A stretch of 64,000 nt of DNA, taken from positions 62,001-126,000 of the forward strand of contig JAFQCT010000010.1 of NCBI GenBank assembly GCA_017399405.1, written 5' to 3'. The notes beneath the pieces were generated by a model. The model searched no databases, was not told the origin of the DNA, and saw only the letters and a program-made list of their open reading frames with translations. Positions within the stretch are counted from its first letter, which is position 1. Each line of letters starts with the position of its first letter. Both the position numbers and the translations under genes were made by a program. Shown piece by piece: positions 796 through 48,450 of this stretch. Origin of the DNA: Clostridia bacterium (lineage in GTDB: Bacteria > Bacillota > Clostridia > Oscillospirales > Acutalibacteraceae).

Positions 796-3021
796 ATGAT
801 TGATAAAACCAGATTACACCTTATATTAAAAGAATATAAAAAAGATTTTCCTAAACTTTTCTGGACCAATAAAACTCAAAACGAAAAGTACAAGTGGGTG
901 GCGGTAAAGCACTTTCAGGATAACTGGGATATAGATGCACCAGATTTCTTGGAGATGTTTACTCGTGCAACAGCAAAAACAGAAAATCTTCTTGCAGCTA
1001 CGAATTACTTTCCCAGAGGAATGATTATGGCTTTTTGTAAGGTGGCGCCTGAAGAAGTGCGCAATATGTTCAGAGATTTGTTCGATGAAAGTAAAAGTGT
1101 GGTTACTCGTGTTGAAACTTTTATAAAAGAATCTGAAAGACTTCGAGTTAAATATAAACCAGAAGATGATTGGAAAGCACACTATCAAAATACCAATTCC
1201 GTTACAACATATTTATGGCTTCGTTATCCTGATAAATATTACATTTATAAATATTCGGAATGTAAAGCTGTAGCAAGTGAACTTGATAATTCATACAAAC
1301 CAACCAAAGGAGCAAAACCCGAAACGTTGCTTGGCTCAATTAAGCTTTATGACGAAATTTCGGAATATCTTGCAACAGATTCTGAATTGGTTAATCTTAT
1401 GAGAAACTCATTGGATGATACTTGTTATCCTGATGCAAATTTTAGAACACTTGCTATTGACGTAGGTTTTTATATAAGTAGATATTATTCTAAAGGAGAA
1501 AAGCCTTTTATGACAAAAGTTGACCACGCATGGTATGTTGGCGCTGTAATTGATGATGTTGATATGCTTGATACATTTATTGCTGAGGGTAGATGGGAAA
1601 ATGGTTACGAAGATAAACATTTAGATGATGTTTTGAATATGAAACCTGGCGATAAAATTGCAATAAAATCATCATACACAAAGAAAAAAGTTCCATTTAA
1701 AACAAATGGTGCATATGTTTCCGTTATGGGTATTAAAGCAATTGGCATGGTGCTTGAAAATAAGGGTGACGGAAGAAATGTAAAAGTTAAATGGGAAAAA
1801 GTTTTTGACCCTGTTAAAGAATGGTACTTCTTTACAATGCGAAGTGTATTGTGGTACGTTGACCGTAAAGAAGAATTTTGGGGTTATGGGGCTCTTTTGG
1901 ATTTCACTTTTGCAGATGTTGAACAAGATTATGAAAAGTTCTTATCAATGCCAGGATGGAAAGAACAATATGGTTTTGAGTTAACCGATGAGAGTTCTGA
2001 AATCATGACAGATGTTGCTAAAAATACAATTTTATACGGCCCTCCCGGTACCGGTAAAACTTATAATACAGTTTGTTATGCAGTTGCTGTTGTAGAAAAC
2101 AAACTCTTGGAAGATGTAATAAGTGAAGCATCTATAGGTGATGGTTATGAGGCTGTGTTCAGTAGATACAACATATATAAAGAACATGGGCTTATTGCAT
2201 TTACAACGTTCCATCAGTCATATGGTTATGAAGAATTTATCGAAGGAATCAAACCAGTTATAAATGACGCGGAAAATTCAGATATTAAATATGCTGTAAC
2301 AAATGGTGTGTTCAAAGATTTCTGTGAACAGGCAGAGACGATTAATCCACAAAACCGTGTATTTATAATCGACGAAATCAACCGTGGTAATATTTCAAAA
2401 ATTTTTGGTGAACTCATCACTCTTGTTGAACCATCAAAACGCGTTGGCGCAGATGAAGGTATAAAAGCAGTATTGCCATATTCAAAGAAACTATTTGGTA
2501 TTCCTGAAAACGTTTACATACTTGGCACAATGAACACTGCAGACCGTTCAATCGCAACACTTGATACCGCTCTCCGCAGAAGATTTGATTTTGTTGAAAT
2601 GATGCCCGACACAAAGGTGTTGGAAGGTATTGAAGTTGATGGTATTAATATCAGTGCAATGCTTGAAAAAATTAATGAAAGAATATCTGTACTTTTTGAT
2701 AGAGAGCACACAATTGGACATGCTTATTTCATTGGCTTGAAAGATAGTCCTTATATGGAAACTCTTGCTAATATTTTTAAAAATAAAGTAATTCCTTTAT
2801 TACAAGAGTATTTTTATGAAGACTATGAAAGAATTCGCCTTGTGCTCGCTGATAATCAAGTTTCAGAAACTGAAAAGCAATTTATTATAGCTGAGGATGT
2901 TAAAGTAACAGAATTGTTCGGTAATAGTGAAATTGATATTATTGATGATACAAAACGATATATAATTAATGATAATGCATTTGAAAACGCTGATGCTTAT
3001 ATGAAAATTTATAGCATCTAA
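796..3021 (+). CDS. mcrB: McrB-type AAA+ GTPase of a modification-dependent restriction system
   Basis: This 741-residue protein is the motor subunit of a McrBC-type system, which cleaves DNA carrying modified cytosine. The AAA+ module is complete: Walker A GPPGTGKT near residue 416, Walker B IIDEINRG near 523, and the McrB signature MNTADRS near 579 followed by the RRRFD finger. The long N-terminal region (residues 1-400) should read the modified base; its part at about 243-370 (AWYVGAV, WENGY, MKPGDKIAIKSSY) looks like an EVE/PUA-type base-reading domain, which is my inference. The start is the ATG at 796; an in-frame-looking ATG at 786 leads to an early stop. A GGAGG lies at 781-785. mcrC follows after 24 bases. 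Confidence 0.9.
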   Translation: MIDKTRLHLILKEYKKDFPKLFWTNKTQNEKYKWVAVKHFQDNWDIDAPDFLEMFTRATAKTENLLAATNYFPRGMIMAFCKVAPEEVRNMFRDLFDESKSVVTRVETFIKESERLRVKYKPEDDWKAHYQNTNSVTTYLWLRYPDKYYIYKYSECKAVASELDNSYKPTKGAKPETLLGSIKLYDEISEYLATDSELVNLMRNSLDDTCYPDANFRTLAIDVGFYISRYYSKGEKPFMTKVDHAWYVGAVIDDVDMLDTFIAEGRWENGYEDKHLDDVLNMKPGDKIAIKSSYTKKKVPFKTNGAYVSVMGIKAIGMVLENKGDGRNVKVKWEKVFDPVKEWYFFTMRSVLWYVDRKEEFWGYGALLDFTFADVEQDYEKFLSMPGWKEQYGFELTDESSEIMTDVAKNTILYGPPGTGKTYNTVCYAVAVVENKLLEDVISEASIGDGYEAVFSRYNIYKEHGLIAFTTFHQSYGYEEFIEGIKPVINDAENSDIKYAVTNGVFKDFCEQAETINPQNRVFIIDEINRGNISKIFGELITLVEPSKRVGADEGIKAVLPYSKKLFGIPENVYILGTMNTADRSIATLDTALRRRFDFVEMMPDTKVLEGIEVDGINISAMLEKINERISVLFDREHTIGHAYFIGLKDSPYMETLANIFKNKVIPLLQEYFYEDYERIRLVLADNQVSETEKQFIIAEDVKVTELFGNSEIDIIDDTKRYIINDNAFENADAYMKIYSI

Positions 3022-3045: not shown

Positions 3046-4341
3046 ATGGCTAAAAAAACTTATACCATAACTGAATACGGCTCTTTTATTAGAAAGAATG
3101 AAGTAATGGGTTATAAAACATTACCTTCAAAAGTTTTTGATGCACTTGAAACATTTATTCTTGAGAATGCTGAAAAGGGTAATGAAACAACTGACTTAAT
3201 GGGAGTTTCTGTAAGAAAGAATATAGGCAAAGTAATTACGGCAAAAAACTATGTTGGTGTAATTGCACTTAATGATGGTAGCATTATCGAAATCCTTCCT
3301 AAAATCTGTGGCGAAGATAATGAAAATGAAGTGAAAAAACTGCTTATAAAAATGTTGAGAACAGTTCAAAATTCACCATTCAAGTCAATGCAATCAACTA
3401 ATGTGAATGTTGATAAACTACCTATTTTTGAAATCTTTATTCGTATGTTTATAGCAGAAACATTTGCTGTTGTAAAAAGAGGATTAAAAAGTGGATATGA
3501 AACAGTTGATGATAATCTCACTGTGTGTAAAGGTAAAATCGATTTTAATAATCAAATAAAATATAACCTTATACATAAAGAAAAGTTCTTTGTGAGCTAT
3601 GACGAGTTCAATAACAATCGTCCGGAAAATCGGCTTGTAAAATCAACTTTGAAATATTTGTTTAAGTACAGTACTTCTTCAAAGAACAAAACCGATTTAA
3701 AAACATTGTTGAATGTGTTTGAAAATATTGATGAATCATCAAATGTTGATGCTGATTTTGAAAAATGTGTTAGTGACCGCAACTCAAAATATTACGAAAC
3801 ACTTTTAATATGGTGTAAAGTTTTCTTAAAAGGGAAAAGTTTTACTTCGTTCGCAGGTTCTGAAGTAGCTTATGCATTATTATTCCCTATGGAAACGATA
3901 TTTGAAAGTTATGTTGCAAAACAATTAAAGAAACAGTTCAATCCAAATGAATACATAGTATCAGCACAACATTCCGCAAAATATCTTTTTGATACACCTC
4001 GCAAATTCTCATTGCGTCCAGACATTGTGATAACAAGAAAATCTGACGGTACATTTTTCATTATGGACACAAAATGGAAACAATTGAATAGCAATCCATC
4101 TTCAAATTATGGCATTTCGCAATCGGATATGTATCAGATGTATGCTTACCAGAAAAAGTATGGTAGCAATGCAAAAAGCGTAACATTGTTATATCCATTA
4201 ACAGAAAACGCACCACAACAAGAAGTAAAATTCGTGTCGGACGATGGCGTTACAGTAAATGTTGTTTTCGTGGATTTAAAAAGAATAGACAATTTATCAC
4301 AAAATTTACAACAGAAGGTTGTAGGTAGCATAAATGGTTAA
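3046..4341 (+). CDS. mcrC: McrC nuclease subunit of the McrBC restriction system
   Basis: McrC is the endonuclease partner of McrB and stimulates its GTPase. The 431-residue length fits the family. The C-terminal half shows the PD-(D/E)xK fold core: RPDIVI near residue 323 and FFIMDTKWK near 337-345, the D...D-x-K arrangement seen in McrC. A good ribosome-binding site (GAAAGGAG) precedes the ATG. Its stop overlaps by eight bases the ATG of a truncated def gene (4334), which shows that def was once translationally coupled to this operon. Together with hsdR and mcrB this forms a restriction island. The N-terminal half, by family knowledge, contacts McrB; I see no motif there. Confidence 0.88.
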   Translation: MAKKTYTITEYGSFIRKNEVMGYKTLPSKVFDALETFILENAEKGNETTDLMGVSVRKNIGKVITAKNYVGVIALNDGSIIEILPKICGEDNENEVKKLLIKMLRTVQNSPFKSMQSTNVNVDKLPIFEIFIRMFIAETFAVVKRGLKSGYETVDDNLTVCKGKIDFNNQIKYNLIHKEKFFVSYDEFNNNRPENRLVKSTLKYLFKYSTSSKNKTDLKTLLNVFENIDESSNVDADFEKCVSDRNSKYYETLLIWCKVFLKGKSFTSFAGSEVAYALLFPMETIFESYVAKQLKKQFNPNEYIVSAQHSAKYLFDTPRKFSLRPDIVITRKSDGTFFIMDTKWKQLNSNPSSNYGISQSDMYQMYAYQKKYGSNAKSVTLLYPLTENAPQQEVKFVSDDGVTVNVVFVDLKRIDNLSQNLQQKVVGSING

Positions 4342-4426
4342 AGAAGTAATTCATGACCCGATTTTGTTGGCAATGAAATCGGAAAAGGCTACAATTGAAG
4401 ATTTGCATATAACGGAGTATTCGTAG
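4334..4426 (+). pseudogene. def: 5' fragment of peptide deformylase gene (duplicated)
   Basis: The ATG at 4334 overlaps the mcrC stop. The first 24 codons read the same as the intact def at 7935 apart from Ile2 to Val, and 72 of the first 74 bases are identical. After base 4407 the match stops abruptly and the frame ends at a TAG six codons later (4424-4426). Only about a sixth of the enzyme remains and all three metal-site motifs are missing, so it cannot function. It is best explained as the residue left when the helicase gene was inserted beside def. Confidence 0.9.
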
Positions 4427-4542
4427 GCCATGGTGTTACGAACTAAAGTCAATGAGATAAAGTGGTAATTAATACATAAAAATATATAATAAACACCTTA
4501 TTTTCTTTTAAAATTTTGTAAACGCTATTTGGAGATGAAAGT

Positions 4543-7500
4543 ATGATAAATCAATCAAAAAATATTGTTGAAAAACATGTTAAAACACATACCGAAAGAG
4601 CGGCGGAGGATGTAGCTGCCGTTAATACGTTGTCATCTTTCCTTGACTCCGATGGAAGAATTAATTGTGATTTCTCAAAAAATGACAAATGGCCCAATAT
4701 AGACGGCACTTTTGAGTTTGTACCTAATCCTGATTTGAACAGAAGACCTTCCCAAAACTTTTTTGTTCAAATTAAGGGCACACATAATTACACTGAAACA
4801 AATAATGAAATCAAGTATTCTTTGCGCAGTCTGGCTTTCCCTGCTTTTATTGCATCTGACGTTACTTTGGACCCTGGTATTCTATTTGTAGTTTTAAATC
4901 CTGACGATAGAGAAACTAAGCGAGTGTTTTGGAAGTATATATCTGTAGATTTTATCAATTCGATAGATTTTACAAAAGAAAGTGCTACAATAACTTTTTC
5001 CGCTGATGAAGAATTGTTTAATTCAGACGATAGCATTACTATATTTTGTAAGAAACTTGAATCTATTATTTCTAGACATTCTTTTGTTAGTAAATTAAGT
5101 GACAGAGAACTTTGTAAAGTGGAAATTGATAGAATTATTAAGGCATGTGACCAATATATTACAAAATGTATTGATTTATTAGATTCTCCTGATTTTACAC
5201 GAGATGATATTTCTCATATGATTTTACCTCGTCTGTATGATTTGTGCAGAGCAGCTTTGTTACTTAATTCATTGAAATTAGGTAGTACGCACACAAATCT
5301 TCAATTAGCTTGGGAGCAAGCGATGCTTAAAATTGAAACTAAGTATCTTGCTACCTTCCTTAGGGGATTAAAATATATTGAGGATAAAGAACCTGATGAT
5401 GGACAATCAGAAAGATTGATGCTAAAGTATTACAATTTTTTATGGCAAATAAGAGATTTTTTAAACAAGGAATATGAAATATCAATACTTCACAACTTGG
5501 AAAAAATCCCACTTAACACGGATAAACTCGATGACAAATACTATGAACTTATAGCAAATGCTATAAATTCTGTAAACATAACGCCACAAAATTTGAGTGG
5601 TTCAAGATTTAATATTATAAAAAAAGTTCCTTTCTTTGTTGGAAAAGAAAGATACTATGAAATTACGCTTCAGTTGGCAGGCGTATATGCAACAAAGTAT
5701 AATCGCATAACTGCATATACAAAAGAAAATCTTACAACCAATTATTCTGTACAAATTGCCTATATTGAGACTGAAATAAATTTATGGGGAATTGATTCCA
5801 AAATTAAAGTAATAACTAATTGGAGTGTATCTATAGAACCCGCTTCTCTAAATAAACTAGCAAAAATATTAAAAATTCAAACACGTATTTCCGCCAACTA
5901 TAATGAATATAGTGCACTTATGGCATTTCTGACACAATCTGGTATCAGTTTGCTCGATTTAATTGATTTGAAAGAAGTATCTTTTTATAAGATTATCGAC
6001 TTGATATACAATGGATTAAGCAAATCGCATTTCAAAGATGTTTTGCTTGTATTGCAATCGTTATATTCAAAAGGGTCAACAGAATTTGGTCGAAATACTG
6101 TTAGATATCTATTAATAAATCTTCGAGAAGAAACATTGGAAAATGTTCTGCCTTGGCATGGTGCTAAAAAAACGCTTACACCTAATTTGTATTTATCAAC
6201 AAAATGTTATCCTTTTGAAAAAAATCCTTTTATATCTAATTTATTTGGTAGTAACACAAGTAACGAAAATAATTTTAGCAATATCATAAATGCAGTTGAA
6301 GAGTCTGACTTAAATATAGTACGTCCTTACCTTAAAATCCAAAATAAAATTAATCGAACTGGTGAAATATTTTTTGATATTACAACAATTGCAAGTCAAG
6401 AAGAAATTGATAATTATAATGCTCATTTGGATAATTGGGAACGTTACAATGGTTATAAAATAAATGTATCAAAAGGTCTTGTTTCTATTGATTCATATGA
6501 AAAAACGACAATTACAATTTTAAAGAAATTGAGCGAACTTTCAAAAATTGGGAATAAAGGGCAAAAAGAATTTAACCAAGCTTATTTAAAGAACTGCGGC
6601 ATTGTGTTTGAAGATGAACTTAAAAGAGTTGCTTTACAGAATGTATTTGTTAATTCACATATTCTTTTAATCTATGGTGCTGCAGGGACAGGAAAAACAC
6701 TGCTCATAAATTACATATCGAATTTGATGTCTGACCAAAAGAAATTATTCTTAACTAAAACACATACTGCAAAACAAAATCTGCAGAGACGTATTGATAA
6801 TCCTGGAGCAGATTCCGACTTTGTAAGTATTGATAGTTTCAAAAAAAGGGTCAATCTGCCTGATTATGATATTATTTTCGTAGATGAATGTAGTACTATT
6901 GACAATCGTACTATGTGTGAATTCCTTGGTAAAATTTCTCCTAATACTTTTTTGGTGTTAGCTGGAGATATACATCAAATTGAATCTATTGATTTTGGAA
7001 ACTGGTTTTTCTATGCTAAAGAGTTAATTAATACGCATGGTTCTAATGTTGAGCTGTTAAATACTTGGCGAACACAAGATGCAGAAATCATCAGTTTGTG
7101 GGATGAAGTGAGATGCAAGGAGGGTTTAATTACTGAAAAATTGGCCATCGATGGACCTTTTTCAGATAATATTGGAGAACAAATTTTTGCTGAAAAAGAA
7201 GATGATGAAGTTGTTCTTTGTTTAAACTATGATGGTAAATTTGGCTTAAATAATATGAATAACTATTTTCAAAACAACAATTCAAGTGGCGATGCAATTG
7301 TATGGCAAGAATGGACCTACAAAGTTGGAGACCACATATTGTTTAATGATTCATCGCGTTTTACAGTTTTATACAATAACCTAAAAGGTACAATAGTGGA
7401 AATCGATAAATCGGATGGTAAAATATCGTTTACCATAGATGTTGATACAAACTTGACAGAAGCTCGATGTGAGAAAGATGGGATTGAGTTCATTTCAGCA

Positions 7501-7857
7501 CAGGAAGATTCAACTCGTATCAGGTTTAGTGTTTTTGCATATAAAGAAACTGACAATGAAGACGAGAATGAAAATGCACGAAAGCTATCGGTTATTCCAT
7601 TCCAACTTGGATATGCTGTTTCCATTCATAAAGCTCAGGGTTTAGAATATGACTCAGTAAAAGTTATTATTCCTAAAAGTAATGCTGAAAAAATTACTCA
7701 TGGTATTTTCTATACTGCTATTACTCGAGCAAAGAAGAAACTTAAAATATACTGGAGTACAGAAATAATGACAGATATAGTTAAGAACTTTGAAGCAGAA
7801 GAGAATGAGCAACGCAGTTTAAGTATAATACGTAATAAACTCATTTCTGAAGATTAA
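4543..7857 (+). CDS. DUF4365 domain fused to superfamily 1 helicase; candidate defence protein
   Basis: A 1104-residue protein with a DUF4365-like N-terminus and a C-terminal SF1 helicase. The N-terminal part has IDG near residue 51 and VQIKG near 76, resembling the D...QxK core of PD-(D/E)xK-type nucleases. The helicase has Walker A GAAGTGKT (about 711-718), Walker B VDECS (about 779), GDIHQ motif III (about 807), a TWRTQ motif, and the C-terminal UvrD-type motifs SIHKAQGLEYDSV (about 1026) and YTAITRAKKKL (about 1056). The middle (200-700) has no motif I recognise. The gene stands alone with its own GGAG site and is bracketed by copies of the def 5' end, so it arrived as a unit. A nuclease-helicase role against foreign DNA is inference from architecture and location. 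Confidence 0.75.
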   Translation: MINQSKNIVEKHVKTHTERAAEDVAAVNTLSSFLDSDGRINCDFSKNDKWPNIDGTFEFVPNPDLNRRPSQNFFVQIKGTHNYTETNNEIKYSLRSLAFPAFIASDVTLDPGILFVVLNPDDRETKRVFWKYISVDFINSIDFTKESATITFSADEELFNSDDSITIFCKKLESIISRHSFVSKLSDRELCKVEIDRIIKACDQYITKCIDLLDSPDFTRDDISHMILPRLYDLCRAALLLNSLKLGSTHTNLQLAWEQAMLKIETKYLATFLRGLKYIEDKEPDDGQSERLMLKYYNFLWQIRDFLNKEYEISILHNLEKIPLNTDKLDDKYYELIANAINSVNITPQNLSGSRFNIIKKVPFFVGKERYYEITLQLAGVYATKYNRITAYTKENLTTNYSVQIAYIETEINLWGIDSKIKVITNWSVSIEPASLNKLAKILKIQTRISANYNEYSALMAFLTQSGISLLDLIDLKEVSFYKIIDLIYNGLSKSHFKDVLLVLQSLYSKGSTEFGRNTVRYLLINLREETLENVLPWHGAKKTLTPNLYLSTKCYPFEKNPFISNLFGSNTSNENNFSNIINAVEESDLNIVRPYLKIQNKINRTGEIFFDITTIASQEEIDNYNAHLDNWERYNGYKINVSKGLVSIDSYEKTTITILKKLSELSKIGNKGQKEFNQAYLKNCGIVFEDELKRVALQNVFVNSHILLIYGAAGTGKTLLINYISNLMSDQKKLFLTKTHTAKQNLQRRIDNPGADSDFVSIDSFKKRVNLPDYDIIFVDECSTIDNRTMCEFLGKISPNTFLVLAGDIHQIESIDFGNWFFYAKELINTHGSNVELLNTWRTQDAEIISLWDEVRCKEGLITEKLAIDGPFSDNIGEQIFAEKEDDEVVLCLNYDGKFGLNNMNNYFQNNNSSGDAIVWQEWTYKVGDHILFNDSSRFTVLYNNLKGTIVEIDKSDGKISFTIDVDTNLTEARCEKDGIEFISAQEDSTRIRFSVFAYKETDNEDENENARKLSVIPFQLGYAVSIHKAQGLEYDSVKVIIPKSNAEKITHGIFYTAITRAKKKLKIYWSTEIMTDIVKNFEAEENEQRSLSIIRNKLISED

Positions 7858-7934
7858 GGTGTTGTTTTATATGCTTAGGGACAATGAGAGCGTAATAACA
7901 AACTTTAAGTTAATGTTATTTGGATGATAATTTT

Positions 7935-8008
7935 ATGATTAAAGAAGTAATTCATGACCCGATTTTGTTGGCGATGAAATCGGAAAAGGCTACAATTGAA
8001 GATTTGCA
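7935..8008 (+). repeat. Direct repeat of def 5' end, second copy
   Basis: These 74 bases repeat 4334-4407 with only two mismatches (codon 2 and the third base of codon 13). The two copies bracket the helicase gene and lie 3.6 kb apart in direct orientation. The copy here is the one that continues into an intact def gene. Confidence 0.93.
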
Positions 8009-8348
8009 GGTGGCACAGGATTTGCTTGACACTCTCACTGCCAATGCTGATGGTTGCGTTGGTGTGGCTGCCAACATGATTGGTGTACATAAGCATATCA
8101 TTTGCTTTGATGATAACGGTAAGTATATGACTATGTTTAATCCTGAAATCATTAAAAAGTCAGAGCCATATGAAACTGAAGAGGGATGCCTTTCGCTGCT
8201 CGGTGGTCCTCGTAAGTGTAAGCGTTACAAAAACATAAAAGTGCAGTGGCAAACAGCTGAATTCCAAACCCGAATCAAAACTTTCACTGGCTGGACAGCA
8301 CAAATCATTCAGCATGAAATCGACCACTGTGATGGTATCTTGATTTAA
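7935..8348 (+). CDS. def: Peptide deformylase
   Basis: Peptide deformylase removes the formyl group from the initiator methionine of new proteins in the cytoplasm. The 137-residue protein has motif II EGCLS (metal Cys) and motif III QHEIDH (two metal His and the catalytic Glu). Motif I reads GVAANMIG, so the usual glutamine of GxGLAAxQ is replaced by Met. The start at ATG 7935 is chosen because the duplicated copy at 4334 starts at the same codon and overlaps mcrC; a TTG at 7920 is possible but has no Shine-Dalgarno. The present upstream sequence is weak in ribosome-binding signal, consistent with loss of its original coupling to mcrC. It could be an accessory copy rather than the housekeeping enzyme. 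Confidence 0.87.
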   Translation: MIKEVIHDPILLAMKSEKATIEDLQVAQDLLDTLTANADGCVGVAANMIGVHKHIICFDDNGKYMTMFNPEIIKKSEPYETEEGCLSLLGGPRKCKRYKNIKVQWQTAEFQTRIKTFTGWTAQIIQHEIDHCDGILI

Positions 8349-8358
8349 TGGTGATGTT

Positions 8359-8808
8359 ATGAAAATAATAATTGATGCTGATGCGTGTCCAGTTGTAGAT
8401 ATTACTGTCAATACAGCTAAGGCACGGAGACTTGAATGTATCATTGTATGCGATAATGCACACACCATTGAAAGGGACGGTGCTGTAACTATTGTTGTTG
8501 ATAAGGGTGCAGATTCTGCCGATTGTCGCATTGCGAATATCACCGAAAAAGGTGATGTGGTTGTTACGCAGGATTATGGACTTGCTGCACTCGTGCTTGG
8601 CAAGGGCGGTAAGGCACTTAATCAGAATGGACTCATTTACACCGATAGCAACATAGAAAATCTCCTTTTCACCCGTTATATAGGCAAAAAGGAGCATATG
8701 GCAGGCAATAGGATAAAGGGTCCGAAAAAGAGAACATCACAAAATGATGTGGATTTTTTTAAGGCATTGCTAATATGCCTTGACCATTGTGATGGGATAT
8801 TGATATAA
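8359..8808 (+). CDS. UPF0178 (YaiI/YqxD, DUF188) family protein with def-like tail
   Basis: The 149-residue protein has the UPF0178 pattern: IIIDADACPV at the N-terminus, VDKGADSADCRIA in the middle, VVVTQDYGLA and the closing GPKKRTSQND. Members have a PIN-like fold; no reaction is firmly established. It starts ten bases after def and is likely cotranscribed. The last eight residues, DHCDGILI, are not typical of this family and are identical to the last eight residues of the deformylase just upstream; the two 27-base ends match at 23 positions. The normal C-terminus has therefore been replaced by a piece of another def copy. The catalytic-looking acidic residues at the N-terminus remain. Confidence 0.85.
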   Translation: MKIIIDADACPVVDITVNTAKARRLECIIVCDNAHTIERDGAVTIVVDKGADSADCRIANITEKGDVVVTQDYGLAALVLGKGGKALNQNGLIYTDSNIENLLFTRYIGKKEHMAGNRIKGPKKRTSQNDVDFFKALLICLDHCDGILI

Positions 8809-8825: not shown

Positions 8826-9731
8826 TTGAATAGAGAACCTATCAGACATCACTATATTCCGCAGTTTATATTAAGAAATTTCTGCTTTAATGATAACAAT
8901 GACTTGTATTATTATGACAAAGAAAGCCAAGAAACAACCATTAGAAATACTCGGGATGTTTTTATGGAGAAAAATCTTTATCGTGATGAAACAAATCATT
9001 CAGATAATCCAACTAAAATTGAAAGTGATTTATCAAGATTTGAAAATGAAATTTCACAAATCATAAATGGCAAATTTCTCAAAGGTAGAGAAATAACATT
9101 GACCTTTTCTGAAGAAGAAGGATTGAAAATCTTTTTTGCAATTATGGGATTTAGGTCTAAAAATGCTAGTAATTTCTTTGGTAAAGATGCCGATAAACAT
9201 ACGAAGGCTTTTTACTCGAATTGCCAAAGTGATGGCAATTTAACAGACTTGTGGAAAAGAAATCTTGGACACATAGTTAATTGTAGAACGATTGAGGAAA
9301 TATTGACTCACGAAAAAATTGATAATCAGATAAAAATATTTTTTCATAGAGATACCGTTGGAATAACGGGTATGTATTTTGTAGTTGTTGAAAGAAAAGA
9401 AAACGAGGATTTTGTTATCGGTGATTCATATCCAGTTATTGTAAATGGTCTGCTTGATAATGGGGTTCAGTTGCAAATCTATTCAATATTTCCAATTTCA
9501 CCAAGCAGGGTAATATTACTGGTGAGCAATGGAGCAGAAGCAACACCAAGAGATGTAGTCTATTTACGTAGATGTGTTTTTACAAAACCCAAAATTGATT
9601 ATGATAACATGTCAATTACAATACGAGTAAAGGGACTTTACAATGAAGAAGTAAGGCACTTGAATAGTATGGTAGTAAAGAATGCTCAAGAAGGAATAGC
9701 TTTTCAAAAAAAGATTAATTCTGAAAATTGA
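8826..9731 (+). CDS. DUF4238 domain protein
   Basis: The 301-residue protein begins with HHYIPQFILRNF, the signature of DUF4238, a family of unknown biochemical function often found in defence and mobile islands. A second block, FFAIMGFRS, is also usual in the family, and the C-terminal half (about 185-260) contains FPISPSRVILL. I see no signal peptide or membrane segment. The start is TTG 8826, preceded by GAGGTG at the right distance; there is no nearby ATG alternative. It follows the UPF0178 gene by 17 bases and ends in a strong hairpin terminator, so it probably closes that transcription unit. A defence role is suggested only by its neighbours. Confidence 0.75.
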   Translation: MNREPIRHHYIPQFILRNFCFNDNNDLYYYDKESQETTIRNTRDVFMEKNLYRDETNHSDNPTKIESDLSRFENEISQIINGKFLKGREITLTFSEEEGLKIFFAIMGFRSKNASNFFGKDADKHTKAFYSNCQSDGNLTDLWKRNLGHIVNCRTIEEILTHEKIDNQIKIFFHRDTVGITGMYFVVVERKENEDFVIGDSYPVIVNGLLDNGVQLQIYSIFPISPSRVILLVSNGAEATPRDVVYLRRCVFTKPKIDYDNMSITIRVKGLYNEEVRHLNSMVVKNAQEGIAFQKKINSEN

Positions 9732-9747
9732 AGCATAAAAACAAATT

Positions 9748-9784
9748 AACACCTATGAGGTTAAATACTTCATAGGTGTTTTTA
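9748..9784 (+). terminator. Intrinsic terminator, CCTATGAGG family copy 1
   Basis: An 11-bp stem (AACACCTATGA with TCATAGGTGTT) is followed by a run of T. It lies 17 bases after the DUF4238 stop. Closely related hairpins end the genes before 11579 and 20072. Confidence 0.85.
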
Positions 9785-9937
9785 TATATCATTTTAAAAG
9801 GGAAAAAGTCAAGCGATTTTTATTTTCTATAAAAATAGAACAAAATGAAGAAATTTATAGATTTTTGTCACAAAATTGCGAATTATTACGATTTATGTAC
9901 TAGGAAAGGTGTAATAAAAGGAAAGGAAGTATTAAAT

Positions 9938-11515
9938 ATGAAAAGTATAGGCGAACTTAATCTTGGTTTTTCAGATGCACAAAATTATATGCAAAGAGGA
10001 AACAAACAGATGTTTTCAGATGTGTTTGTGAAAAATTCATACTTAGATGATATGCTAGAACCTAACATTTATTTCTTAGTAGGTGAAAAAGGAACGGGTA
10101 AAACAGCATATGCGACATATTTGAATAATAGCAATTATCATGGAAACAAATCTGTACTAAAATTTATAAATGGTACCGACTATGAAAAATTTTACGATTT
10201 AAAAAAATCTGGTAAAATTGACATAAGTGGTTATGTTGATATATGGAAGACAATTATTCTATTGCTTTTTGCAAAAAGCATAACAAAAGATGATATTACA
10301 ATATCTATTTTTGATAAAAGCAACTTAAATGAATTATTAAAAGCTATTGATGAGTATTACAATAAAGCCTTTTCTCCTGAGATAATAAATGCATTAAAAA
10401 TTGTTGACAAAAGTGATATAGCGGCAAAACTTGTTTGCCAGTATGCTGAAGCAGGTGCAAGTAGTGAATCGACAGTAGAGTTTAATGAGCAACGTCTACA
10501 AATGAACTTGTATTATATTTGTAAAAAGTTTTGTGATTGTTTAGGAAAGTTAAAATTAGAAAAAAATATAACACTCTATATTGATGGCATTGATGTTAGA
10601 CCAAGTCAAATCCCTTATGAAGAGTATTTAGAATGTATTAGAGGATTGGCAAACGCTAGTTGGACATTAAATACAGAATTGTTTGCAAATGTACGTGATT
10701 CAAAGGGGCAATTTAAAGTTGTGCTTTTGTTACGACCAGATATTTTTAATTCATTGAATTTGCAAAATGCCACAAATAAATTGGTTGATAATTCGGTTTA
10801 TTTGGAATGGAGAACTACATATACTGATTATGAGACATCCACTTTATATAGAATGGCTAATAAACTTTTGTCTTATGATCAATTATATGATGCAAACAAA
10901 GATATATGGGATGATTATTTTGATTGGAAAATTAAAACGCCAAACAAATTCAGAGTATATGATACTGCATTTATGGAATTTCTAAAAATATCTTTAAGTA
11001 GACCAAGAGATATTCAAAGAATATTAAAATTGATGCAAGACCTTATGAAACAAAGAAGTATGGGGAAATATCAAAAATTCAGTTGGGATGTTTATTCAAG
11101 TGATGAATTTCAAAACGCATATTCGGAGTATTTTTTAAGTTCGTTAAAAGATCAGTTGTCATTTTACTATTCGGAGGAAGATTATAAACATTTTAGGAAA
11201 TTTTTCGATTTTTTCCCAAATCCAGAGTTTACATATGATGAATATCTAACGAATTATTCTAAGTTTGAAGATTATATTTTAGAAAACGCAAAAGAAGTTC
11301 CTAAGTTTGTGGAAAAGCCAAATATATTTTTGCAATTATTATATGACAGTAATATTATAGCAGCAATTGAAAATGGCAATGGGAGATTTTTTCATTTTTC
11401 ATACAGAGAAAAAAGTCCCACCAATATTGCACCTGAGGTGCCTTGTGACAAAAACATTTCATATATATTCCATTATGGTTTATACAAAAAGACGCGAATG
11501 GGTAGATATGACTAA
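9938..11515 (+). CDS. P-loop ATPase, FunZ/Sll1717-like
   Basis: A 525-residue protein with an early Walker A motif, GEKGTGKT, near residue 49 and a likely Walker B, LYIDGID, near residue 210. The opening LNLGFSDAQNY resembles P-loop proteins annotated as FunZ or Sll1717-family ATPases, common in defence islands; this assignment is from memory of the pattern and not certain. The C-terminal half is rich in aromatic and acidic residues with no recognised domain. I chose ATG 9938 because GGAAAGGAAG lies just before it; an upstream ATG at 9845 has no such site. It stands alone between two terminators of the same family. No partner gene is adjacent. Confidence 0.65.
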   Translation: MKSIGELNLGFSDAQNYMQRGNKQMFSDVFVKNSYLDDMLEPNIYFLVGEKGTGKTAYATYLNNSNYHGNKSVLKFINGTDYEKFYDLKKSGKIDISGYVDIWKTIILLLFAKSITKDDITISIFDKSNLNELLKAIDEYYNKAFSPEIINALKIVDKSDIAAKLVCQYAEAGASSESTVEFNEQRLQMNLYYICKKFCDCLGKLKLEKNITLYIDGIDVRPSQIPYEEYLECIRGLANASWTLNTELFANVRDSKGQFKVVLLLRPDIFNSLNLQNATNKLVDNSVYLEWRTTYTDYETSTLYRMANKLLSYDQLYDANKDIWDDYFDWKIKTPNKFRVYDTAFMEFLKISLSRPRDIQRILKLMQDLMKQRSMGKYQKFSWDVYSSDEFQNAYSEYFLSSLKDQLSFYYSEEDYKHFRKFFDFFPNPEFTYDEYLTNYSKFEDYILENAKEVPKFVEKPNIFLQLLYDSNIIAAIENGNGRFFHFSYREKSPTNIAPEVPCDKNISYIFHYGLYKKTRMGRYD

Positions 11516-17847: not shown

Positions 17848-18066
17848 ATGAAAATTAGTAATAACTATTCATTTGAAAATCTTGAAAACGAGCTTCTTAC
17901 AGCTAAAGAGTTAAAACAGGTGATGCGTTGTGGCATCAATAGGGCATATGACCTTTTAAAATCAACAGCTTTTCCTTCAACAAAAATAGGAGGCCGTTAC
18001 TACGTAACGACCTCGGCATTAAAAGAATGGCTTGTTATGTATGAGAACAAAGTGTTTTATATTTAA
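17848..18066 (+). CDS. Excisionase-like DNA-binding protein
   Basis: A 72-residue protein with a winged-helix/AlpA-type fold: LLTAKELKQVMRCGINRAYDL, then STKIGGRYYVTTSALKEWL. This pattern (recognition helix, short wing with GGR-Y) is that of small excisionases and HTH_17 proteins. It has a TTAGGAG site. It converges on the integrase gene, sharing its last four bases with that gene's end, which fits a role in directing the integrase to excise the element. Confidence 0.75.
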   Translation: MKISNNYSFENLENELLTAKELKQVMRCGINRAYDLLKSTAFPSTKIGGRYYVTTSALKEWLVMYENKVFYI

Positions 18067-19223
18067 TCCAACAATTTGATTGTATTCACTTTATCTTCAT
18101 CTTTAGTGTGTACATATTTATTAATCGTAACACTTACATCCGCATGACCAAGCAGTTTGGAAACAATAGCAATATTCGCATCTTTTTTGTTGATGAGATT
18201 TGTAGCAAATGAATGACGCATTGAGTGAGGGCCGTAAATTTTATTTACGGTCTTTCCTTTTTCGTCGACTGCCTTATCCATTTCCGCTGCATAAAGAATA
18301 TTTTCAAACATTCTTGCAAAGTTTCTTACAGTGATAGGCGTGCCTTCTGATGTGGAAGAAACATATTCAAAATCTCCGTTGAGATTATAAAGTCGTTCAA
18401 ATGCTTCTTTACACTTTTTACTCATAGGGATTGTTCTTATACTTGATTTAGTTTTTGGTTTATTTATAACATCCACGTAATTAGGGTCCGTGGGTGCTTT
18501 TTTATTACGATTTTTTACATGTTGTCTTGTTTTTGTTATAGAAATTGTGTTGTTTTTGAAGTCAATATCATCCCATGTCAGAGCTAGAAATTCACCTGAA
18601 CGCATACCAGTTTGACCAAGCACGATGACAGCATCGCCAAGTCGATATACATTTTCTTTTTTACCTGATACGGTGTGCATTTTGGTAGCTGCTTCATAAA
18701 TTTTGTTTAATTCTTTTTCAGTGTAAAAAACGATATCGTCAGAGTCTTTGGATGAGGCACTTTCAGGGATTTTAACATCTTCAAACGGATTGTCTTCATA
18801 TTTTTTGAGAACTTTGTGGAACCTTAAGGCAGCTTTTAAGGTTTCTTTTGCTTTCTTAATTGTCGACTTGCTGAAACCATCATTTGAAAGGTCATTTAAC
18901 CACTTTTGAACTTTTGTTGATGTTAAAGTTATAACTTGAACTTTACCAATATATGGAATAATTTGATGATTAACTATCTGTTCTTTGCGGTCGAATGTTG
19001 ATGCTTTGTTAGCAATACCTCTTTGAATCTCTAACCAATCAGTGACAAGTGTTTCAATATTAGTTTTGCCATAGTCTTCAACTAATTTCCGTTGTTTTAC
19101 ATTGTTTTTAAGTTCGGTATAATATTGTTCAGCAGCTTTTCGTGTTGCTTTGACATATTTTTTACCATTAAGATTAAAATAATAATTACCATCTTTTCTT
19201 TGATGTACGCGTGGATTAGACAT
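18063..19223 (-). CDS. int: Tyrosine-type site-specific integrase
   Basis: A 386-residue phage/ICE-type integrase. The N-terminal part holds an arm-binding region (RKDGNYYFNLNGKKYVK) and a SAM-like core-binding domain (about 60-165). The catalytic domain shows GMRSGE (first Arg), the KTKSSIRTIPM beta-hairpin, HSMRHSFATNL (His-x-x-Arg) and LLGHADVSVTINKY (His, nucleophile Tyr). Start at the ATG with AGGAGG upstream (19223); a longer reading to 19298 lacks a ribosome-binding site. Upstream lie repeated TGTACCAA and AGTGAA sites and a broken tRNA-Trp, so this is the recombinase of the element on its left. Confidence 0.93.
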   Translation of the reverse strand: MSNPRVHQRKDGNYYFNLNGKKYVKATRKAAEQYYTELKNNVKQRKLVEDYGKTNIETLVTDWLEIQRGIANKASTFDRKEQIVNHQIIPYIGKVQVITLTSTKVQKWLNDLSNDGFSKSTIKKAKETLKAALRFHKVLKKYEDNPFEDVKIPESASSKDSDDIVFYTEKELNKIYEAATKMHTVSGKKENVYRLGDAVIVLGQTGMRSGEFLALTWDDIDFKNNTISITKTRQHVKNRNKKAPTDPNYVDVINKPKTKSSIRTIPMSKKCKEAFERLYNLNGDFEYVSSTSEGTPITVRNFARMFENILYAAEMDKAVDEKGKTVNKIYGPHSMRHSFATNLINKKDANIAIVSKLLGHADVSVTINKYVHTKDEDKVNTIKLLD

Positions 19224-19286
19224 AATAAAACCTCCTATCAGTTTTACTATACCACATAAATTCATATAAATCAATGCTTTTAAGCA

Positions 19287-19375
19287 AAAATGTACCAAAA
19301 ATGTACCAATTTAAGCGTTAAAGGTAGTGAATTCAAGTGAAGATAAGTGAAAAATAGTGAAAATCAAAAAGTGCG
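19287..19375. repeat. Arm-type integrase sites (direct repeats)
   Basis: Two copies of AAAATGTACCAA, 11 bases apart, lie at 19287-19310, and four copies of AGTGAA start at 19326, 19336, 19346 and 19356, exactly one helical turn apart; a partial fifth (AGTGCG) is at 19370. Between these and the tRNA piece is an inverted repeat around AAAACCCTTG (from 19377). The layout resembles an attP arm. Confidence 0.6.
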
Positions 19376-19448
19376 AAAACCCTTGATAAATAAGGAGTTT
19401 TGCAATTTCAAGCCATTTTGAATAGATGGAAACAAAATATGCTTCACA

Positions 19449-19489
19449 GGTTTTGGAGACCGCTGCTCTACCAACTGAGCTATACCCCT
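19449..19489 (-). pseudogene. 5' half of tRNA-Trp(CCA), probable attachment-site junction
   Basis: Read on the minus strand, this starts AGGGGTATAGCTCAGTTGG, has a complete D arm (GCTC/GAGC), the GCGGT anticodon stem and the anticodon CCA in loop CTCCAAA, then ACC. After that the tRNA stops matching: no variable loop, T arm or 3' acceptor follows. The break is in the anticodon stem on the side facing the integrase, 0.23 kb from the int start. This is what integration into a tRNA gene leaves when the element does not restore it at this end. Confidence 0.8.
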
Positions 19490-19779
19490 ATATTGTTGTG
19501 CTTCAACACACTATTATGTTATACACATTTTTAGTGGTTTTTCAATGTGTTTTTAATATATTTCATATCTATTTTATGTCAAGGTTTTTTCATCGTATGT
19601 ACGAACAACAGTTTTGTATGATATTAAATTTTGATTTTTTGCATAATATTGACTCATTTTTATTGAGATTTTGTTTTTGCTAAGTTTTTAGCTCTTTGCT
19701 TGCAGTATCACATTGTATTCGCCTCTTTTCGTCATGAGTTTAATACAAATATGACAGATTTTGATTAATATAAATTTTT

Positions 19780-20067
19780 ATGACAACTTTGGAAGACCTA
19801 TATTACGGGAACATTGTTCCCGCGGATAGGAAAATCGAGAGAGGGAGTGAGTATTCACAACTTTTGCACCTTGCTGCACGGAACGAAGAAAAGTTATCCG
19901 CAACACTAACAAAGGAGCAGAAAATTCTGTTTGAAAAGTACAAGGAGTGTTGTGTGGATATGTACGGCATTGCAGAGCTTGAAGCGTTTGTGTCAGGAGT
20001 GAAATTAGGTGTGAACATCATTGTTGAAACTTACACCGATAGTTCACAAAATTTCAAAGAGATATAA
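19780..20067 (+). CDS. DUF6809 family protein
   Basis: A 95-residue protein of the DUF6809 type: LEDLYYGNIVPADR at the N-terminus and ELEAFVSGVKLGVNIIVETY at the C-terminus, which is the typical two-block pattern of these short helical proteins. Function unknown. No clear ribosome-binding site precedes the ATG, so expression is uncertain. It is followed five bases later by a third copy of the CCTATGAGG terminator. Confidence 0.65.
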   Translation: MTTLEDLYYGNIVPADRKIERGSEYSQLLHLAARNEEKLSATLTKEQKILFEKYKECCVDMYGIAELEAFVSGVKLGVNIIVETYTDSSQNFKEI

Positions 20068-47475: not shown

Positions 47476-48450
47476 ATGAATAAATTCAGATGGTGTTTTA
47501 TAGGTGCAGGTAGTCTTGCAAAAACTGTTGCATTTCAGCTTAACAGAAGTGGTCGCCACGAAATTGTGTCTTGCTATACGCGAAACTATGAAAAAGGCGT
47601 TGCATTCGCAAAAAAATACGGTGGCAAAGCATATAAAACAGCCGAAGAGGCAATCACAGCCGAGGGAGTTGACGGTGTTTATATTGTTACACCTCATAAT
47701 GCTCATTATCGTTATGTTAAACAAGCATTAGAACTTGGGAAACCCGTATTCTGTGAAAAATCTTTTACAGTAACAGCACAAGAAACTGACGAGCTTATTG
47801 CCTTAGCACGAGAAAAAGATTTATATCTTTGCGAAGCTATGTGGACTTGGTTTTCACCATCTGCAAATCAGACTAAAAAATGGATTGATGAAAAGAAACT
47901 CGGTAAAATTCATTCTGCCGATTTCACATATCATGTGAATATTATAAATGGTGCAGAGCGTGTAAGAGACCCTAAAAGAGCAGGGGGTGCATTACTTGAT
48001 ATTACAATTTACCCTGTAACTTATGCTTATAGACTTTGGGGAATCCCTCAAAAAATAGAAAGTAAGGGCAATATTCAAAACGGTATTGATATAAGCGAAG
48101 AAATTGTGTTTACTTATCCTGACTTCAAGGTGAATATAAGTGCGTCTATTGCCGACTTCAAGGGCTTTGAAAAAATGTCAATCAAAGGCGAAAATGGTGA
48201 AATTAAAGCAACCCTTTACCACGCTATGAATGGTGTTACATTCAAAAAGTCTATGTTTAAGAAAGAAACATTCAAGGGTAATGGCCCTAAAATGAATTCT
48301 TATCTTGACGAGTTTGATACAGTAGCAAAAGAAATCCGTGAAGGGCTAAAAGAAAGCCGAATGGTGCCACTTAAAGCCACATCCGATGTTATGCATCTTC
48401 TTGATGAAATCCGTGAGCAAATAGGACTTAATTACGATAATCTCGAGTAA
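47476..48450 (+). CDS. Gfo/Idh/MocA-family oxidoreductase
   Basis: A 324-residue sugar dehydrogenase. The Rossmann start reads WCFIGAGSLAKTV, followed by VYIVTPHNAHYRYVKQAL and the family motif GKPVFCEKSFTVT (EK-P type, catalytic Lys). It acts on pyranose or inositol-like substrates using NAD(P). Twelve bases separate it from the aldo-keto reductase gene and AAAGGAG precedes the ATG, so they form one transcript. Confidence 0.9.
   Translation: MNKFRWCFIGAGSLAKTVAFQLNRSGRHEIVSCYTRNYEKGVAFAKKYGGKAYKTAEEAITAEGVDGVYIVTPHNAHYRYVKQALELGKPVFCEKSFTVTAQETDELIALAREKDLYLCEAMWTWFSPSANQTKKWIDEKKLGKIHSADFTYHVNIINGAERVRDPKRAGGALLDITIYPVTYAYRLWGIPQKIESKGNIQNGIDISEEIVFTYPDFKVNISASIADFKGFEKMSIKGENGEIKATLYHAMNGVTFKKSMFKKETFKGNGPKMNSYLDEFDTVAKEIREGLKESRMVPLKATSDVMHLLDEIREQIGLNYDNLE

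What the first reader, a model, noticed from the sequence alone, without database searches (positions are those of the whole stretch)
4334..8008. Helicase gene inserted at the mcrC-def junction, leaving a 74-bp def duplication
Seen directly: bases 4334-4407 and 7935-8008 match at 72 of 74 positions, and only the second copy continues as an intact def. The first ATG overlaps the mcrC stop by eight bases, so mcrC-def was the original arrangement. Between the copies lies exactly one gene, the 1104-residue DUF4365-helicase. This is a recent insertion whose target-site-like duplication is far longer than any IS target repeat, and no transposase is present; homologous or microhomology recombination with another island seems likelier.
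Basis: partly seen in the sequence, partly recalled or inferred. Interest (0 to 1): 0.72.

Follow-up and report, generated by a model that had tools for sequence, protein, structure and literature searches.

The report
Deformylase-gene scars in a defence island
A bacterial defence island carries one intact copy and two broken ends of an accessory peptide-deformylase gene around its helicase and a yaiI gene, which looks like scars of repeated DNA exchange through a gene that otherwise different islands have in common.

Summary
In detail: 4334-4407 and 7935-8008 match at 72 of 74 positions, only the second continues as intact def, and one 1104-aa helicase gene lies between. The reading changes. 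(1) A third def piece was missed: yaiI, behind def, ends in a 27-nt def 3' end fused in frame (8782-8808), so the anatomy is def5'-helicase-def-yaiI-def3'. (2) "Recent" is not shown: the def 5' end is 73/74 identical in another species. (3) The island is cargo of a 75-kb integrative element with a tyrosine recombinase and a tRNA-Trp repeat in the window. (4) A congener's element at tRNA-Trp also has def, before a 36-38% relative of this helicase; between the shared end genes def is the only blastn match (E<=1e-6). (5) No mcrC-def empty site (0 of 13 mcrC loci) and no donor was found. I favour several steps of recombination through def copies with decay of the outer ones (0.45) over one replacement event (0.25) and over insertion with long target duplication, known for restriction genes (0.2).

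The parts
796..3021 (+). mcrB-like AAA+ gene, 741 aa
3046..4341 (+). mcrC, 431 aa; its stop codon lies inside the def 5' remnant (8-nt overlap)
   Evidence: (McrBC E 1.8e-98)
4334..4407 (+). def 5' remnant, 72/74 identical to the intact def; as read it gives a 30-codon ORF
4408..4430 (+). possible strongly decayed continuation of the def remnant (15/23 to the def of G012); tentative
   Evidence: none of 259 other registers reaches 15/23
4543..7857 (+). 1104-aa SF1 helicase with N-terminal DUF4365; PADLOC candidate defence family PDC-S53 over residues 195-1099
   Evidence: E 1.2e-286
7935..8348 (+). intact accessory def, 137 aa, NCBIfam PRK09218 peptide deformylase; EGCLS and HExxH present, motif-1 Gln of the housekeeping copy aligned with Met (motif roles recalled)
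8359..8808 (+). yaiI (DUF188) gene whose last codons and stop are a def 3' end
   Evidence: NF001095 matches residues 1-140 of 149
8782..8808 (+). def 3' remnant, 27 nt: 26/27 to the def of L021, 23/27 to the intact def of the window
8826..9731 (+). DUF4238 gene, next behind the scar
9783..9813 (+). 31-nt intergenic stretch found elsewhere next to DUF6809 genes, here without the gene; also between helicase and NACHT gene in G012
9845..11515 (+). P-loop ATPase, Sll1717 family
17848..18066 (+). 72-aa HTH_17 protein, excisionase-like by position (inference)
18063..19298 (-). tyrosine recombinase (integrase) of the element that carries the island
   Evidence: PF00589 E 9.6e-26
19449..19489 (.). 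att-like repeat: 41-nt exact copy of the 5' half of tRNA-Trp; intact tRNA-Trp at C8:6076-6151, about 75 kb away

Best explanation
The region is defence cargo of an integrative element at tRNA-Trp, and the three def pieces are scars of exchange through the accessory def gene. In this genus all five full copies found lie inside defence islands, and between two related elements def is the only cargo sequence alike enough to show in blastn. Most likely, blocks of cargo entered next to resident def copies by recombination in def, giving an array def-helicase-def-yaiI-def; the outer, redundant copies then lost their inner parts by deletion, leaving a 5' end behind mcrC and a 3' end that now supplies the last codons and stop of yaiI. 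SHOWN: the pieces, their identities, the in-frame fusion, the integrase and tRNA repeats, the shared def. INFERRED: recombination in def as the cause, the order of events, that the outer pieces were once full-length copies, that more than one event was needed, and that the element moves.
For: Three def pieces in one array, the retained ends facing outward. The yaiI tail is a def end: 26/27 to L021 def; apart from the def end itself the next place in the window scores 20/27. The motif HC[DNEG]G.[LIV][IVF]* (and its variants scanned) away from a def occurs only here in the window plus 213 loci (1.85 Mb, partly overlapping); four yaiI relatives at 80-86% show no such tail, one of them cut by its contig end. 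Sister element G012: between the GDSL gene and the g12259 gene (31 and 19 kb) def is the only blastn match at E<=1e-6 (own 69925-70351, and own 66334-66430 against the same def). Second island type, own C16 against G013 C3: inside, def plus a 92-bp methyltransferase match. The five full defs in the genus (4 of 40 genomes) lie among restriction or other defence genes with different neighbours. Mosaic signal in def: window against G013, 1 of 40 mismatches in the first 90 nt, 9.3 expected, P = 3.5e-4 for that pair. Another scar of the same sort, the DUF6809-linked 31-nt stretch, in both elements.
Against: No second def piece at E<=1e-3 in any of the 80 other def loci and only a 20-nt match at E 0.001 (L213) in 34 further loci, not all of which hold def, so such arrays are rare. 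No full def-cargo-def array was seen. In the wider set of close def loci the neighbours are mostly not defence genes by the Pfam families shown (37 upstream and 39 downstream neighbours; 25 of 39 and 25 of 50 families shown). The def tree does not decide: it puts the window with G013 of the other island type (96/88), but groupings by island site are not rejected (AU p 0.58 and 0.20). The mosaic P value is for a pair picked after inspection; five other pairs gave P 0.011 to 0.69.
Confidence: 0.45

Rival explanations
1. One replacement event: a block helicase-def-yaiI was inserted into a resident mcrC-def, replacing its middle (about nt 75 to 387) and leaving the resident gene's two ends outside; the block brought its own intact def.
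For: Explains both remnants as the two ends of one gene with one event. At the yaiI/def joint the bases TTGA occur both in the end of the yaiI relative L140 and in defs such as those of L015 and L016, as expected of microhomology joining. The left remnant beyond nt 74 and the right tail are both less like the intact def (tail 23/27; nt 75-97 nearest G012's def at 15/23) than the first 74 nt.
Against: Needs two illegitimate joints in one 414-bp gene. The first 74 nt are nearest the intact def itself (72/74), which then needs gene conversion or a shared tract as well. No locus with the block helicase-def-yaiI was found; yaiI stands near def, one gene apart, only in G046 and G179, and there it is a 50-51% relative.
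Confidence: 0.25
2. One reading: only the helicase was inserted at mcrC-def, duplicating 74 bp of target, as in insertion with long target duplication described for restriction-modification genes; the def tail on yaiI is a separate event.
For: Direct repeats of 74 bp flank exactly one gene. The pattern is described for restriction-modification genes in H. pylori and said to hold for all types of RM systems (passages in PMC1643837; PMC3031569). An 8-nt overlap like mcrC-def is an ordinary join: 4 of 31 same-strand upstream neighbours of def in other loci show it.
Against: No mcrC-def without insert: 0 of 13 other mcrC loci have def in the fetched flanks. The right-hand repeat starts exactly at the def start codon, a coincidence under free target duplication. 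It leaves the second scar unexplained. In the sister element def stands before the helicase, so def-helicase may be the older order.
Confidence: 0.2
3. Assembly artefact: the contig joins two places through the def repeat.
For: The genome is a draft of 21 contigs with a second def of this kind at 87% identity.
Against: The left piece is bounded by unique sequence on both sides, differs from both full copies, and a mis-join through a repeat would not make a truncated copy (inference).
Confidence: 0.03

Closest known systems
Insertion with long target duplication (Nobusato et al. 2000; seen only as described in passages of PMC1643837 and PMC3031569)
   Same: An insert with a defence-type gene flanked by direct repeats far longer than IS target repeats, no transposase between them.
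   Different: No empty target site found; a second remnant lies outside the repeat pair; one repeat starts exactly at a start codon; the insert is a candidate defence helicase, not an RM pair.
Exchange of cargo between related integrative elements or defence hotspots through shared sequence (general idea, recalled)
   Same: Two elements at tRNA-Trp share end genes and differ in nearly all cargo.
   Different: The shared sequence here is a small accessory gene in the middle of the cargo, and broken ends of it remain on both sides.
PDC-S53 (PADLOC phage-defence candidate)
   Same: The helicase matches over residues 195-1099, E 1.2e-286; the G012 helicase matches over nearly its full length.
   Different: The window protein has DUF4365 in an extra N-terminal region, which its 59% relative in G172 shares in the alignment and those of G012 and G049 lack.

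Membership tests
Insertion with long target duplication | insert flanked by long direct repeats of the target | tested here: met
   74 nt, 72 identical, around 4408-7934
Insertion with long target duplication | related genome with the single, uninterrupted target | tested here: not met
   mcrC found in 3 more of 300 family genomes (E<=1e-40) and 10 more of 394 order genomes (E<=1e-60); no def in the flanks of those 13 loci; both searches are samples of larger groups
Insertion with long target duplication | repeat ends not tied to gene boundaries | tested here: inconclusive
   left end of the right copy is at the def start codon; a single case
Peptide deformylase PRK09218 (NF006670) | score above the curated cut-off over the full length | tested here: met
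   186 bits, cut-off 162, residues 1-137
Peptide deformylase PRK09218 (NF006670) | deformylase activity | not testable with these tools
   EGCLS and HExxH kept, motif-1 Gln of the housekeeping copy aligned with Met
PDC-S53 helicase | match to the PADLOC profile over the helicase part | tested here: met
tRNA-integrating element | tyrosine recombinase beside a direct repeat of a tRNA gene segment | tested here: met
   integrase 18063-19298, repeat 19449-19489, intact tRNA-Trp C8:6076-6151; G012 has tRNA-Trp and a 25-bp repeat by its integrase
tRNA-integrating element | empty tRNA site in a relative | not tested
   no relative without the element was examined at tRNA-Trp; the flanks of the two elements do not line up simply
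tRNA-integrating element | excision and integration activity | not testable with these tools
   no read data

The most novel reading that the evidence does not exclude
A small accessory peptide-deformylase gene is a reused homology handle of defence islands: cargo on either side is swapped by crossovers in def, within and between integrative elements, so that the gene persists while nearly everything around it turns over, and broken def ends mark past exchanges.
Probability: 0.3. Interest if true: 0.62.

Novelty: new variant of a known kind. Interest (0 to 1): 0.4.

Why it matters
How defence genes are gathered and swapped inside islands without a dedicated recombinase is an open question. A gene that is the only shared cargo sequence of two otherwise different elements, with broken ends on both sides of new neighbours, is a concrete and testable candidate for a recombination handle. 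If these are only chance scars, the case is still a caution: near-identity of a short duplicate did not show a recent event here, because that end of the gene is equally alike in another species.

Tried and rejected
Not kept: def as a general insertion target (no def remnant at E<=1e-3 in the 80 other def loci). Rejected: the yaiI tail as a natural yaiI end (relatives end before it). Not kept: constraint on the def 5' end as the cause of the 72/74 identity; among distant pairs the first 90 columns hold 23% of mismatches against 22% of columns, so that end is not specially conserved. Led nowhere: the helicase in viral contigs (16 pattern matches, none a relative); the helicase on plasmids (9 records, all under 60% identity); def on plasmids (753 records) and phages (109 records), nearly all under 60% identity, neighbours not analysed; eight viral-contig def loci fetched but their neighbours not analysed; the 135-bp and 77-bp stretches beside the helicase match nothing else held at E<=0.01. 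one search found 582 def relatives and kept the best 80, so the def survey is a part. Literature: peptide deformylase with defense island gave one listing, on a new Paenarthrobacter species; PDC-S53 gave none; searches gave nothing on def as a handle (search listings and starts of abstracts only). Nobusato 2000 itself was not read. The def tree was built twice, with and without the first 90 columns, and site groupings were not rejected.

In my notes the GDSL, g12259 and integrase genes were first called anchors of a chromosomal hotspot; some searches showed an integrase and tRNA repeats, so the report treats them as parts of an integrative element. The odds did not change.

Full report
OBSERVATION. 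The repeat is real and as stated: 4334-4407 against 7935-8008, 72 of 74 identical, the best repeat of the window (E 1.2e-30); the longest exact repeat is 35 nt against 15-18 in 20 codon-block shuffles. mcrC (3046-4341) overlaps the left def start by 8 nt, and 4543-7857 is the only long gene between the copies. The window is C8:62001-126000 of a 1.96-Mb draft genome in 21 contigs.

WHAT ELSE IS THERE. The genome has three def genes by profile: a housekeeping one on C5, the window's, and one on C16; the C16 gene is 87% identical to the window's over 423 nt. The window also holds a third piece of def. The yaiI (DUF188) gene just behind def ends in DHCDGILI and a stop, the end of def in the same frame; the 27 nt at 8782-8808 are 26/27 identical to the def end of L021 and 23/27 to the window's own def, and apart from the true def end the next place in the window scores 20/27. 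Four yaiI relatives at 80-86% identity show no such tail (one is cut by its contig end), and the NCBI yaiI profile stops at residue 140 of 149. A scan of the window and 213 held loci (1.85 Mb, partly overlapping) for the def C-terminal motif away from a def gave eight hits, all of them this one place seen in overlapping loci. The anatomy is therefore mcrC - def 5' end - helicase - def - yaiI - def 3' end - DUF4238.

THE LEFT PIECE. Its first 74 nt are nearest the window's def (72), then the def of G013 (71), C16 (68) and G012 (65). But the window's def is itself 73/74 to that of G013, another species, and only 90% over the whole gene. So the 72/74 match does not date the duplication. Between window and G013 only 1 of 40 mismatches lies in the first 90 nt (9.3 expected from distant pairs, P = 3.5e-4); for window-C16 it is 5 of 52 (P = 0.011), C16-G013 6 of 54 (P = 0.021), and three other pairs show nothing (P 0.15 to 0.69). 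Since distant pairs show no special conservation there, I read this as a possible recombination tract; the pair was picked after inspection. Past nt 74 the piece still matches the def of G012 at 15 of 23 positions, which none of 259 other registers reaches for any def in the set: a hint, no more, that an older, decayed def lies under the near-identical part.

THE VEHICLE. In the congener G012 (a sheep-colon Clostridia MAG by its contig) the island has the same ends: a GDSL-lipase gene at 88.6% nt and the g12259 gene at 73%, then a small gene and an integrase at 71%. The window's integrase gene is a tyrosine recombinase and the small gene an HTH_17 protein. Beside it, window 19449-19489 repeats exactly 41 nt of the 5' half of tRNA-Trp, whose intact gene is at C8:6076-6151; G012 has tRNA-Trp at C1:77715-77790 and a 25-nt copy next to its integrase at 109463-109487. 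I read both islands as cargo of integrative elements at tRNA-Trp, about 75 and 32 kb long. The flanks of the two do not line up simply, which I leave open, and no empty tRNA-Trp site was examined.

DEF IN OTHER ISLANDS. In 4 of 40 genus genomes a def of this kind is found at DNA level, five full copies in all, all among restriction or other defence genes: behind HsdR and before a PDC-S53 helicase (G012), behind C5 methyltransferases and a gene without a Pfam match (G013), behind a DUF4365 gene (G011), behind an SF1 helicase with DUF2726 and before an M78 gene (C16), and the window's. In the family, def is in 60 of 300 genomes at E<=1e-30. Some close ones follow a PDC-S41 helicase (G171), an Mrr nuclease (G328), a GHKL-type ATPase behind methyltransferases (G228) or a C5 methyltransferase (G288); others do not (for example the second copy of G171, L203). 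Over the 40 best def loci the immediate neighbours are mixed: of 37 upstream neighbours two match type I restriction R domains, with single hits such as DndB and DUF4268, while NUDIX, dehydrogenase, PEP-utilising and permease families make up much of the rest of the 25 of 39 families shown; of 39 downstream neighbours the 25 of 50 families shown are transporters, HTH regulators, glycosidases and others. Between the two tRNA-Trp elements def is the only blastn match at E<=1e-6 inside the cargo. Below that threshold a 31-nt stretch that elsewhere stands beside DUF6809 genes lies, without the gene, at window 9783-9813 and between helicase and NACHT gene in G012: a second kind of scar in both.

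Empty site: mcrC relatives were found in 3 more of 300 family genomes and 10 more of 394 order genomes, both samples of larger groups; none of the 13 loci has def in its fetched flanks, which are about 1.5 kb a side and in two loci (L123, L233) shorter on one side; the wider stretches fetched for the three family loci hold none either. Among 80 def loci, two have mcrC in the neighbourhood but in another arrangement (L069, L092). Donor: strong helicase relatives are in 10 of 300 family genomes including this one and in G012. Of these 11 genomes four have a def within 7 kb (this one, G012, G172, G288), but only this one and G012 have it next door. The nearest helicase, in G172 at 59%, is the last gene of another operon without def beside it.

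MECHANISM. Shown: three def pieces, the in-frame fusion, the integrase and tRNA repeats, def as the shared cargo sequence. Inferred: that the outer pieces were once full copies, that cargo came in through recombination in def, and that inner parts were then deleted. A single replacement explains both ends in one step but needs two illegitimate joints in one small gene; target duplication explains the left piece alone. I put 0.45, 0.25 and 0.2 on these. What def does in an island is not known; the protein scores above the cut-off of the PRK09218 deformylase family, with Met at the place of the motif-1 glutamine of the housekeeping copy (the role of that glutamine is recalled).

KNOWN OR NEW. 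Long direct repeats around inserted restriction genes are in print as insertion with long target duplication (passages read in PMC1643837, and PMC3031569; the original was not read). McrBC systems are described as mobile and often linked with methyltransferase or RM genes (passages in PMC2614495). I found no paper on an accessory deformylase as a handle of defence islands in the listings, which cover open PMC papers only. I rate it a new variant of a known kind, of moderate interest.

Noticed in passing
18063-19489: Tyrosine recombinase and a 41-bp tRNA-Trp 5'-half repeat: one end of a 75-kb integrative element whose other end is the intact tRNA-Trp at C8:6076-6151.
   Followed up: partly
9783-9813: 31-nt stretch that stands beside DUF6809 genes in C16 and G171, here without the gene; the same scar lies between helicase and NACHT gene in G012 (L097).
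   Followed up: partly
19775-20067: A stretch 86.7% identical to the DUF6809 gene of C16 (2458-2750); a relative of the next C16 gene is at C8:46383-47221, close to a stretch (47505-47610) like the sequence before the rve transposase gene at the border of the G013 island.
   Followed up: no
4543-7857: Fusion of a DUF4365 region to a PDC-S53 helicase; of the four helicases aligned only this one and the 59% relative in G172 have the N-terminal region.
   Followed up: partly
7935-8348: Accessory deformylase with Met in place of the motif-1 Gln of the housekeeping copy; whether it is active is open.
   Followed up: no
L225 4230-4233: In G015 the GDSL gene overlaps the next gene by 4 nt, while in the window's genome about 3 kb with other ORFs lie between their relatives.
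   Followed up: no
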